NCBI RefSeq assembly: GCF_019059575.1
Contig: NW_024881961.1
Location: 182,501-246,500, forward strand
Direction of reading: 5' to 3'
Origin: Amphibalanus amphitrite
Taxonomy: Eukaryota > Arthropoda > Thecostraca > Balanomorpha > Balanidae
DNA length: 64,000 nt
A program made the translations under genes and the position numbers. Below the pieces are notes generated by a model. That model worked only from the letters and a program-made list of their open reading frames with translations. It did no database searches and was not told the origin of the DNA. Below, piece by piece: positions 9,601-15,600 of this stretch (the first letter of the stretch is position 1; each line of letters opens with the position of its first letter).

Positions 9601-12600
9601 GTACTCATTCGATGGCGACTATAAACATTACACAATTTATCGTCCGCCCACCCGGCCGGAGCCCGCCCTGCCCTCGGTAGGTACTCACTCGATGTACGGC
9701 TGGTGGACGGCCACCAGTGCCCTGCCCTCGGTAGGTACTCACTCGATGTACGGCTGGTGGACGGCCACCAGTGCCCTGCCCTCGGTAGGTACCTACTCAC
9801 TCGATGTACGGCTGGTGGACGGCCACCAGTGCCCTGCCCTCGGTAGGTACTCACTCGATGTACGGCTGGTGGACGGCCACCAGTGCCCTGCCCTCGGTAG
9901 GTACTCACTCGATGTACGGCTGGTGGACGGCCACCAGTGCCCTGCCCTCGGTACCTACTCACTCGATATACGGCTGGTGGACGGCCACCAGTGCCCTGCC
10001 CTCGGTAGGTACCTACTCACTCGATGTACGGCTGGTGGACGGCCACCAGTGCCCTGCCCTCGGTAGGTACTCACTCGATGTACGGCTGGTGGACGGCCAC
10101 CAGTGCCCTGCCCTCGGTAGGTACTCACTCGATGTACGGCTGGTGGACGGCCACCAGTGCCCTGCCCTCGGTAGGTACTCACTCGATGTACGGCTGGTGG
10201 ACGGCCACCAGTGCCCTGCCCTCGGTACCTACTCACTCGATATACGGCTGGTGGACGGCCACCAGTGCCCTGCCCTCGGTAGGTACTCACTCAATGTACG
10301 GCTGGTGGACGGCCACCAGTGCCCTGCCCTCGGTAGGTACTCACTCGATGTACGGCTGGTGGACGGCCACCAGTGCCCTGCCCTCGGTAGGTACTCACTC
10401 AATGTACGGCTGGTGGACGGCCACCAGTGCCCTGCCCTCGGTAGGTACTCACTCGATGTACGGCTGGTGGACGGCCACCAGTGCCCTGCCCTCGGTAGGT
10501 ACTCACTCGATGTACGGCTGGTGGACGGCCACCAGTGCCCTGCCATCGGTAGGTACTCACTCGATGTACGGCTGGTGGACGGCCACCAGTGCCCTGCCAT
10601 CGGTAGGTACTCACTCGATGTACGGCTGGTGGACGGCCACCAGTGCCCTGCCCTCGGTAGGTACTCACTCGATGTACGGCTGGTGGACGGCCACCAGTGC
10701 CCTGCCATCGGTAGGTACTCACTCGATGTACGGCTGGTGGACGGCCACCAGTGCCCTGCCCTCGGTAGGTACTCACTCGATGTACGGCTGGTGGACGGCC
10801 ACCAGTGCCCTGCCCTCGGTAGGTACTCACTCGATGTACGGCTGGTGGACGGCCACCAGTGCCCTGCCCTCGGTAGGTACTCACTCGATGTACGGCTGGT
10901 GGACGGCCACCAGTGCCCTGCCATCGGTAGGTACTCACTCGATGTACGGCTGGTGGACGGCCACCAGTGCCCTGCCCTCGGTAGGTACTCACTCGATGTA
11001 CGGCTGGTGGACGGCCACCAGTGCCCTGCCATCGGTAGGTACCTACTCACTCGATGTACGGCTGGTGGACGGCCACCAGTACCCTGCCCTCGGTAGGCAC
11101 TCACTCGATATACCGCTGGTGGACGGCCACCAGTGCCCTGCCCTCGGTAGGTACTCACTCGATGTACGGCTGGTGGACGGCCACCAGTGCCCTGCCATCG
11201 GTAGGTACTCACTCGATGTACGGCTGGTGGACGGCCACCAGTGCCCTGCCCTCGGTAGGTACTCACTCGATGTACGGCTGGTGGACGGCCACCAGTGCCC
11301 TGCCCTCGGTAGGTACCTACTCACTCGATGTACGGCTGGTGGACGGCCACCAGTGCCCTGCCATCGGTAGGTACTCACTCGATATACGGCTGGTGGACGG
11401 CCACCAGTGCCCTGCCATCGGTAGGTACTCACTCGATGTACGGCTGGTGGACGGCCACCAGTGCCCTGCCCTCGGTAGGTACTCACTCGATGTACGGCTG
11501 GTGGACGGCCACCAGTGCCCTGCCATCGGTAGGTACTCACTCGATGTACGGCTGGTGGACGGCCACCAGTGCCCTGCCCTCGGTAGGTACTCACTCGATG
11601 TACGGCTGGTGGACGGCCACCAGTGCCCTGCCCTCGGTAGGTACTCACTCGATGTACGGCTGGTGGACGGCCACCAGTGCCCTGCCCTCGGTAGGTACTC
11701 ACTCGATGTACGGCTGGTGGACGGCCACCAGTGCCCTGCCATCGGTAGGTACTCACTCGATGTACGGCTGGTGGACGGCCACCAGTGCCCTGCCCTCGGT
11801 AGGTACTCACTCGATATACGGCTGGTGGACGGCCACCAGTGCCCTGCCCTCGGTAGGTACTCACTCGATGTACGGCTGGTGGACGGCCACCAGTGCCCTG
11901 CCCTCGGTAGGTACTCACTCGATGTACGGCTGGTGGACGGCCACCAGTGCCCTGCCCTCGGTAGGTACTCACTCGATGTACGGCTGGTGGACGGCCACCA
12001 GTGCCCTGCCCTCGGTAGGTACTCACTCGATGTACGGCTGGTGGACGGCCACCAGTGCCCTGCCATCGGTAGGTACTCACTCGATGTACGGCTGGTGGAC
12101 GGCCACCAGTGCCCTGCCCTCGGTAGGTACTCACTCGATGTACGGCTGGTGGACGGCCACCAGTGCCCTGCCCTCGGTAGGTACTCACTCGATGTACGGC
12201 TGGTGGACGGCCACCAGTGCCCTGCCCTCGGTAGGTACTCACTCGATGTACGGCTGGTGGACGGCCACCAGTGCCCTGCCCTCGGTAGGTACTCACTCGA
12301 TGTACGGCTGGTGGACGGCCACCAGTGCCCTGCCCTCGGTAGGTACTCACTCGATGTACGGCTGGTGGACGGCCACCAGTGCCCTGCCCTCGGTAGGTAC
12401 TCACTCGATGTACGGCTGGTGGACGGCCACCAGTGCCCTGCCCTCGGTAGGTACTCACTCGATGTACGGCTGGTGGACGGCCACCAGTGCCCTGCCATCG
12501 GTAGGTACTCACTCGATGTACGGCTGGTGGACGGCCACCAGTGCCCTGCCCTCGGTACCTACTCACTCGATGTACGGCTGGTGGACGGCCACCAGTGCCC

Positions 12601-15600
12601 TGCCATCGGTAGGTACCTACTCACTCGATGTACGGCTGGTGGACGGCCACCAGTACCCTGCCCTCGGTAGGCACTCACTCGATATACGGCTGGTGGACGG
12701 CCACCAGTGCCCTGCCATCGGTAGGTACTCACTCAATGTACGGCTGGTGGACGGCCACCAGTGCCCTGCCATCGGTAGGTACTCACTCGATATACGGCTG
12801 GTGGACGGCCACCAGTGCCCTGCCCTCGGTAGGTACTCACTCAATATACGGCTGGTGGACGGCCACCAGTGCCCTGCCCTCGGTAGGTACTCACTCAATG
12901 TACGGCTGGTGGACGGCCACCAGTGACCTGCTATCGGTAGGTACCAGGGTTGTGCTCGACTCAAAAAAATTTGCCGACTCGACTCAGCATTCAACTTCAG
13001 AAAGCCCTGACTCAACTCTGACTCAAACAAGGAGCTGATTTTTTTCCCTTGACTCGACTCATGACTCAAGCGGCTCAATGAAAATATGAGTTGACTCAAA
13101 CTTGACTCATATAAAAAAGCTGTTGAGCGGGGGGGGGGGGGGTGAAAAAAATTCGGCAGCAAGGCCAGGCCTAAGCTGTTAAGCGAGGGGAGAATGAAAA
13201 GCTTATATATTTATGTTTCTAGAAAGGTGAGTCAGCTGACTCATGTTCCTAAATGTTTTTGACTCAACTCAATGTCAAAAGTTATTTTACTGACTCAACT
13301 CTGACTCAACTCAACACCTTAATATTTTTGTCCGACTCAACTCTGACTCAACTCAACAGCTCAACATTTTATCCGACTCGACTCAACCCTGACTCATTTG
13401 AGTCAGAGTTGAGTCAAATTTCTGACTCGACTCATGAGTCAAGCACAACCCTGGTAGGTACTCACTCAATGTACGGCTGGTGGACGGCCACCAGTGCCCT
13501 GCCCTCGGTAGGTACTCACTCGATGTACGGCTGGTGGACGGCCACCAGTGCCCTGCCATCGGTAGGTACTCACTCGATATACGGCTGGTGGACGGCCACC
13601 AGTGCCCTGCCATCGGTAGGTACTCACTCGATATACGGCTGGTGGACGGCCACCAGTGCCGCGTGAAACGTCAGGGAGACGGCCGCCAGGTGGAAATAGT
13701 CGAACAGTACCGGCAGGTGGTAGTGCAGGCCCCTGGAATCAGAAGACGCAGGTGTCACCGCAACATCAGACGAACGTCCTGAGGATAAGTCGAACAGCAA
13801 CGATTGTAGTACAGACCCTGCGCGACAAAATGTAGCGACTTTTTATAGACACTTGTCCGAATGGATGAATCAGGATGTCTACTGTCTATGGGCCCGGGTA
13901 CCCCTCTAACGCACTTGTCCTTGCTTTCCGAGCCATGCACATGCTCTTTGTAAGCACAAGGTCCAACACAACCTCTTTTGTTTTAAGCTCCAAATAAAAT
14001 CCGATTTGACTAGAACACGTGCCGATGCGGGGCTGTTGTGGTGCGTGCACTGTGCAGTGTACTCTGCCTCCATCTTCATCCACATCTGTATCGGACCTGT
14101 GGCCAGCGCAATCCGGAACGAGCCGACAGTGCACTGCCCAGTGAAATGGTGGTAGGTAATACTATATATTACCTACTATACTATATATACTATATATTAC
14201 TACAATATATACTATATATTACTACAATATATACTATACATTACTACAATATATACTATATATTACTATATATGAGCTATATACTAGACGAAGAGGACCA
14301 GCCGGGACCAGCCGCCGTTGCCGGGAGCATGGAGGTTGCCGTCCATAAACAAGCTCGCGGTAGCATGAGGGCATTTGGTCCGCTGCAGCCCGCGCTGCGG
14401 AATGTCCGCGCTCAAGGTCGGTGTTTACGTTCACAGAGAGGCCTGCTGGTGGAGCCGTCAGTTGTTGGCCAGGGTCGCCTCAGTCGGGCCGAGTGCAGTG
14501 GGCAGAACACCACCTACCAGCGGTCGGTGAAGCGACCATGCAGTGGCCAGACATCAGCGATCGTCGAACAGGGCACAAGCGACCAGTGGTCGGAGGACGA
14601 GCGACCAGTGGCCGGAGGACGAGTGACCAGTGGTGAGAGCATCAGTGACCAGTGGTCAGAGCACCAGTGACCAGTAATCGGTGAAGCGGCCGACGGTCGG
14701 TGAAGCGGCCGGCGATGTCAGGAGACGGGCCGGCCGTCGGTGCGGCCGGCCCGCTGAGGGACCGGCATGTGGCCAACATGCTGCGAGCCTGTGGCCAGCA
14801 CATCGGACTGGTGGTCGACCATATCGCAGAAAACGTCTTCGCCAACGATAAACAGTACACGTTCATGAAATGCCAAATGGAGGAACAGACTGAAAGCATT
14901 CAGTACTTTTGTCGTCGTCCACTGTTGCACGAACTCCAGAAGCGCTACACCCAGTGTGACTGTTCTCCATTCGGGCGACTGCTGGTGACGAGTGTGGCCA
15001 CATCGGGCAGTTCTGCCGAAAGGCTCTACCAGCCACCGCGACCGCCGGTACATCAGACGCCCTCCGACGCAGATAGGATGATCGAGCTGGGCCCGGTGCA
15101 GTGGGCGTTCCCTGCCGACACAGCGGACAGCCCGGCGCACGGCGGAGACTGGCCCGGCACCGGCCCGGCACCGCGGCTGCACATCACCGACACAGAGAAC
15201 CCCGGCTTCGTGCTGCTGCTGCAGGAGAAACGTGCCAGCTGTCGGCACTCGGAGCGGTTGGCCTTCCGGGCGGAGCACGTTACCCAGCTGCTGACCGACT
15301 ACCTGCGATTGACCGCTGGTGAAGCGGTCACACGGCGCGCTATAAACGGCCCGGCCTGTTCCTACTCAACCGCTTCAGACACGGCGTTCCAAGTGACTGA
15401 GTACGACGACGTGCCGTGCCTGCGGATTCCCGTGTGGTGGTTCTCTGATGAGTTTTTCACGCGACAAAGGCGTTACGGCTGGCCGCCGCAGGCCGTGCTG
15501 GATGACATCCGCCAGTTCGGTCTGCACCTGGTGCCGGTGGGTGCTCCCGGGAGTCGCTCGCAGCAGATCGAGTGGCGGCTGTCCTTCTCTCGAGCAGAGC

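What the first reader, a model, noticed from the sequence alone, without database searches (positions are those of the whole stretch)
9665..13661. Tandem amplification of a real splice donor (~64 copies) directly downstream of its own exon
The 54-bp unit equals the last ~33 nt of FAM135 exon 4, its donor GTGAGT and ~16 intronic bases, and the rightmost copy is the exon end itself. In every copy I read, the donor motif is intact. U1 snRNP could bind dozens of sites, and each copy also ends in GGCAG, an acceptor-like dinucleotide. Only the first donor (the exon-proximal one) leaves the frame intact: reading past it hits TGA at once. So the array could act as a donor reservoir, a splicing-rate or nonsense-mediated-decay switch, or be neutral. 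A minisatellite seeded on an exon-intron boundary is unusual.
Basis: partly seen in the sequence, partly recalled or inferred. Interest (0 to 1): 0.85.

Follow-up and report, generated by a model that had tools for sequence, protein, structure and literature searches.

The report
Minisatellite copying a gene's splice donor
A 54-base piece spanning the end of one FAM135 exon and its splice signal has been copied about 64 times into the following intron; similar repeats are known in human genes, so it is a striking new example of a known kind of repeat rather than a new mechanism.

Summary
On the minus strand, exon 4 of a FAM135 gene (Pfam DUF3657, E 4.6e-21 on joined exons 2-5) ends inside copy 1 of a 64-copy array; the 54-bp unit is 33 nt of exon end plus 21 nt of intron. 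GTGAGT is intact in 64 of 64 copies, and TGA follows at once in frame in 64 of 64. Searches of the 807-Mb assembly found the unit nowhere else, so it arose locally. Intact donors are not evidence of selection: with 9 variable sites in 54, a spared donor hexamer has chance 0.32, and an older repeat of the donor region beside the array has lost its donor. Best reading: a nearly neutral minisatellite, donor 1 used, slight leakage to the next donors giving stop-containing RNA. The human ABCA7 repeat (PMC5954066) and IFI6 are precedents. New member of a known kind. No RNA data were available.

The parts
13628..13732 (-). FAM135 exon 4 (105 nt, phase 2 at both ends); its last 33 nt (13660-13628) are the exonic part of repeat copy 1
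   Evidence: Pfam PF12394 own-genome hit, joined-exon scan, reading frame
13622..13627 (-). Exon 4 donor GTGAGT (donor 1); U1 duplex -7.1 kcal/mol
13453..13660 (-). Exon-side block of the array, copies 1-3 and most of copy 4
   Evidence: TRF, copy list
12945..13453 (.). 509-bp hAT-like non-autonomous element inserted in the intronic part of copy 4; 12-bp perfect terminal inverted repeats, 8-bp target duplication (GTAGGTAC on the + strand)
9665..12944 (-). Distal block of the array, end of copy 4 and copies 5-64
   Evidence: TRF, copy list
9480..9614 (-). Two older, degenerate repeats of the donor region (period about 76 nt); donor changed to ATGAGT in the first, lost in the second; the second is only weakly supported
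   Evidence: local alignments and shuffles
8658..8757 (-). FAM135 exon 5 (100 nt), the acceptor partner of exon 4 in the gene model
   Evidence: phase and reading frame
17354..17505 (-). FAM135 exon 3 (approximate 5' edge); its donor is CAG|GTGAGA
   Evidence: tblastn with a recalled query, donor scan

Best explanation
It is a minisatellite that began as a short tandem duplication across the exon 4 donor of FAM135 and grew to 64 copies into the intron. It is largely a passenger. The spliceosome most likely defines exon 4 with the donor nearest its acceptor (a 105-nt exon), so the protein is normal. A small share of transcripts probably uses donor 2, 3 or 4; each step adds 54 nt, reads GAG TGA at once, and would be degraded or give a truncated protein. 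By analogy with ABCA7, array length may also alter inclusion of a neighbouring exon. Shown: anatomy, local origin, reading frames, transposon insertion, decay of an older donor copy. Inferred: donor choice, leakage level, fate of the transcripts, near-neutrality.
For: Array and donors. Gene and frame. Only this locus matched in the assembly: 26 of 26 matches; 63 of 63. No sign of selection on the donor: P 0.32. The neighbouring older repeat has ATGAGT in place of GTGAGT. A transposon sits in the array without matching loss of the rest. In ABCA7, retention of one unit was a minor isoform that did not change with length, while exon 19 skipping rose with length (PMC5954066, passages).
Against: No transcript was examined, so donor choice is untested. 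The exon 4 donor is the weakest of the eight scored in this gene (-7.1 against -8.0 to -11.6 kcal/mol), so donor 1 has no strength advantage over its copies. In IFI6 downstream repeat donors are used. The silent nature of the two commonest exon variants (TAC/TAT, ATC/ATT) would also fit some constraint.
Confidence: 0.7

Rival explanations
1. Donor reservoir or NMD switch: the many donors compete for U1, and array length sets what share of transcripts carry the immediate TGA, tuning FAM135 output.
For: 64 of 64 donors intact, TGA after each, a weak exon 4 donor; ABCA7 expression fell with VNTR length.
Against: Donor conservation fits chance; an older donor copy decayed; in ABCA7 the one-unit retention isoform did not depend on length.
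Confidence: 0.12
2. Microexon bank: any unit can be spliced in as a 33-nt, in-frame exon between its CAG and its donor, adding 11 residues that repeat the end of exon 4.
For: The cassette is open and in frame in 63 of 63 copies after the first.
Against: No pyrimidine tract before the CAG (41% pyrimidine); only 21 nt between neighbouring cassettes, so only distant pairs could be used; no transcript seen.
Confidence: 0.04
3. Assembly artefact: the copy number is inflated by the assembler.
For: Tandem arrays are hard to assemble. The second-haplotype contig C341 has 6,377 bp where C464 has 9,868 bp between the same flanking points, though much of that stretch reads N.
Against: 14 unit types in an irregular order and a transposon with a perfect target duplication inside the array, with unique sequence at both edges.
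Confidence: 0.08
4. A dispersed satellite or intron-making element (introner) that happens to carry a donor landed beside the exon.
For: Units carry a donor and an acceptor-like CAG.
Against: Every match to the unit in the assembly lies in this array (26 of 26, 63 of 63), and 33 nt of the unit are coding sequence of this exon.
Confidence: 0.02

Closest known systems
Human ABCA7 intron 18 VNTR (PMC5954066; passages read)
   Same: Tandem repeat directly after an exon that includes that exon's donor; many copies (about 12 to 427); using the next donor retains one unit and gives a premature stop
   Different: 25-bp unit starting at the donor GT, against 54 bp with 33 nt of coding exon here; allele lengths and isoforms were measured there and not here; no transposon in the array mentioned in the passages seen
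Human IFI6 (G1P3, 6-16) minisatellite (Turri et al. 1995, original not held; one sentence in PMC4526556 and citations)
   Same: Minisatellite at an exon end that provides several splice donors
   Different: There two downstream units are used as donors and give different isoforms; here any later donor gives an immediate stop
Intron gain or sliding by tandem duplication of coding sequence with a proto-splice site (PMC2891723; passages read)
   Same: Tandem duplication carrying splice signals at an exon
   Different: Here the intron already existed and was lengthened; no new intron position is shown
hAT-type non-autonomous elements (family features recalled)
   Same: The 509-bp insert has CAGGG...CCCTG ends and 8-bp target duplications
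   Different: It is a guest in the array and not its source; no transposase was sought

Membership tests
Donor-containing exon-edge VNTR (ABCA7 type) | Repeat directly abuts the exon and the first unit holds the true donor | tested here: met
   Exon 4 ends inside copy 1 at GA|GTGAGT
Donor-containing exon-edge VNTR (ABCA7 type) | Many units, each with the donor | tested here: met
   64 of 64 copies
Donor-containing exon-edge VNTR (ABCA7 type) | Copy number differs between alleles | tested here: inconclusive
   Second haplotype C341 is about 3.5 kb shorter between flanking points, but the stretch itself reads N as far as read
Donor-containing exon-edge VNTR (ABCA7 type) | Downstream unit donors used in RNA; neighbouring exon inclusion depends on length | not testable with these tools
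   No RNA data for this organism
Dispersed satellite or introner | Copies at many loci | tested here: not met
   every match is in this array
hAT-type element (insert at 12945-13453) | Short inverted ends and 8-bp target duplications in a dispersed family | tested here: met
   12-bp perfect ends, 8-bp duplication; 41 matches listed, 40 of 846 candidates scored; 17 of 20 copies with a perfect 8-bp duplication
hAT-type element (insert at 12945-13453) | Mobilised by a hAT transposase | not tested
   No transposase gene was looked for

The most novel reading that the evidence does not exclude
The amplified weak donor is a length-tuned control: copy number, perhaps differing between haplotypes, sets what share of FAM135 transcripts take a downstream donor or an 11-residue microexon, with the array and the coding end of exon 4 evolving together by exchange.
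Probability: 0.07. Interest if true: 0.75.

Novelty: new member of a known kind. Interest (0 to 1): 0.36.

Why it matters
It is a natural test of donor choice: 64 near-identical donors downstream of one acceptor, with frame-labelled outcomes (donor 1 normal, any later donor a stop, a microexon +11 residues). It also shows the coding end of an exon inside a repeat that turns over, so the array could in principle overwrite the exon. ABCA7 shows that repeats of this kind can matter in people.

Tried and rejected
A 30-nt exon at 9106-9135 was considered after and dropped: exon 4 joins the exon at 8757 directly in phase 2 and fits the recalled FAM135 sequence better. Dispersed satellite: rejected. 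Selection on donors: not supported. Hairpin-driven growth: an 18-nt stretch of the exon part, chosen by eye, folds at -10 kcal/mol (1 of 200 shuffles as good), but the whole unit is ordinary (z -0.29 as RNA, -0.77 and -1.26 for the two DNA strands), so it is left open. Likeness of neighbouring copies: mean adjacent difference 1.30 against 1.41 in shuffles, P 0.10, not significant. Rfam on 8000-15000: 0 matches. Kinase-locus control: 30 loci, 113,760 bases, 4 arrays, none with GTRAGT and none overlapping the match; weak, since many of these loci are long open frames. Literature: ten searches; (barnacle, minisatellite, intron) and searches returned no paper; by title, none of the papers listed (5 of 7 shown) concerns a repeat in FAM135. 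Most subscription papers are not held. Organism: not established. A barnacle such as Amphibalanus amphitrite was a guess from recall; the assembly size given for that species in PMC8917513 (613 Mb) differs from 807.55 Mb here. In one search four of 20 element copies (L024, L035, L036, L041) came out at about 43% difference, probably because they are reversed; I set them aside, so the family majority rests mainly on the other 16.

Full report
Observation. TRF reports one 54-bp array in two blocks, 9665-12944 and 13453-13660. On the minus strand the unit reads, in order, 33 nt of exon end, the donor GTGAGT, and 15 further intron bases. Splitting on the exon motif gives 64 copies of 14 types; 5 are 58 bp because of a 4-bp insertion. 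The donor hexamer is identical in 64 of 64 copies. In the 31 exonic positions compared, four vary: two silently (TAC/TAT, T in 10 copies; ATC/ATT, T in 6) and two with a change of residue (in 2 copies and 1 copy).

The gene. The assembly search with Pfam PF12394 gave one match, at window 13654-13737 on the minus strand. Joined exons 2-5 give DUF3657, 'Protein FAM135', E 4.6e-21, 75.5 bits against a cut-off of 27, with no other family at E 1 or better. A tblastn with a FAM135 fragment recalled from memory placed eight matches in order along the minus strand. Exon 4 is 13732-13628 and exon 5 is 8757-8658; they join in phase 2 as GA|C (Asp) and read through without a stop. The intron is 4,870 nt, of which the array and its insert make about 3.96 kb. 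The exon edges rest on homology and phase; no transcript was seen.

What reading on would do. If a later donor is used, the frame reads GAG TGA immediately, in 64 of 64 copies. If instead a unit is spliced in between its CAG and its donor, the 33-nt cassette is open and in frame in 63 of 63 copies after the first. That CAG has a poor tract (41% pyrimidine in the 17 nt before it, against 76% and 65% at the exon 4 and exon 5 acceptors), and neighbouring cassettes are 21 nt apart, so this is unlikely. The exon 4 donor pairs with U1 at -7.1 kcal/mol, the weakest of eight donors scored in this gene (others -8.0 to -11.6). Two cautions: for the other exons the script took the strongest GT near the homology edge, and exon 7 has a second candidate at -7.1.

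Origin and age. A search of the 807.55-Mb assembly with exon 4 and the proximal units found 26 matches, all in this array; a second with exon 4 and its upstream intron found 63, all here. The tool scores only its best candidates, so diverged copies could be missed. The repeat therefore most likely arose on the spot. Beyond copy 64 the intron carries older repeats of the donor region. The first aligns from CATCGA through the donor and on to about 75 nt (score 71; maximum 34 in 500 shuffles); its GTGAGT has become ATGAGT. The second is weak (37 against a shuffle maximum of 40 when compared with the unit and its flank; 47 against 38 when compared with the first) and lacks the site. So the donor edge seems to have been duplicated at least once before, and a donor copy decayed. 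The younger array is uneven: 9 types in copies 1-11, 3 in copies 12-32, 8 in copies 33-54, 3 in copies 54-64. The mean difference between copies is 1.4 variants per unit, about 2.6%; neighbouring copies are not significantly more alike than random ones (P 0.10).

The insert. Bases 12945-13453 are a 509-bp element with 12-bp perfect inverted ends and an 8-bp target duplication taken from copy 4. It is a dispersed family: 41 matches listed, with 40 of 846 candidates scored, and 17 of the 20 copies read have a perfect 8-bp duplication. The window copy differs from the family majority at 15 of 507 sites. The array is therefore older than this insertion. The element separates four donors near the exon from sixty beyond.

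Is there selection on donors? Counting nine variable sites in 54 positions (by hand, the insertion and the nearby CC/GG change taken as one), the chance that a given six are all spared is 0.32. Exon plus donor has 4 variable of 37, the rest 5 of 17 (Fisher P 0.12). Neither supports selection, and neither excludes it.

How unusual? In 54 sources, 257,974 bases of this genome, 25 arrays passed (period 15 or more, 3 or more copies); only the two pieces of this array hold GTRAGT, and the next longest has 8.3 copies. The sample is small and not random (the window, loci around transposon copies and kinase genes, and a few others), and shorter periods were left out.

The other haplotype. Many kinase loci occur twice at near-equal scores, and the large FAM135 exon has a second copy on C341 at 96% identity. 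C341 matches the window from 17562 to 14077 and again from 4209. Between these points C341 has 6,377 bp and C464 9,868 bp, but C341 reads N from 312501 to the end of the piece read, 317000, and window sequence from 13600-14080 and 8640-9560 found no match there. If the N run has its true length, the second haplotype is about 3.5 kb shorter, which would fit few or no units; this is not shown.

Known relatives. ABCA7 intron 18 has a 25-bp VNTR whose first two bases are the exon 18 donor, seen at about 12 to 427 copies; one-unit retention gives a frameshift and did not change with length, whereas exon 19 skipping rose with length and expression fell (PMC5954066, passages). IFI6 uses two downstream repeat units as donors (PMC4526556, one sentence; the original paper is not held). 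The present array has the same anatomy, with the added points that 33 nt of coding exon are in the unit, that each extra step gives a stop, and that a transposon sits inside.

Verdict. A real, large example of a known kind. Most likely it is a nearly neutral minisatellite whose first donor is used, with slight leakage. Whether it regulates FAM135 can be settled by cDNA, which was not available here.

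Noticed in passing
14685-16799, + strand: A 704-codon open frame on the opposite strand inside FAM135 intron 3 matches Mab-21_C (39 bits, cut-off 24.1) and Mab-21 (27.5 bits, cut-off 24.1), the family that includes cGAS-like receptors (recalled); the stretch is also present on the second haplotype at 92% identity.
   Followed up: partly
7672-8608: An 8-bp repeat (GTCCGTCT) of about 117 copies lies in the next FAM135 intron, between exon 5 and the exon match at 7553.
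   Followed up: no
12945-13453: The inserted element holds 15 copies of TGASTCA, the AP-1-type motif (motif name recalled).
   Followed up: no
24488-24811, - strand: A weak AXH (Ataxin-1) match, 28 bits against a cut-off of 33, hints at an Ataxin-1-like gene; the larger open frame at 26220-27269 had no Pfam match.
   Followed up: partly
14159-14283: An AT-rich tandem repeat is largely absent from the second haplotype C341 (L078 3377-3417 spans the place), so it looks polymorphic.
   Followed up: no
whole assembly G000: Many protein kinase loci appear in pairs of near-equal score on different contigs, which suggests that both haplotypes are kept apart in the assembly.
   Followed up: partly
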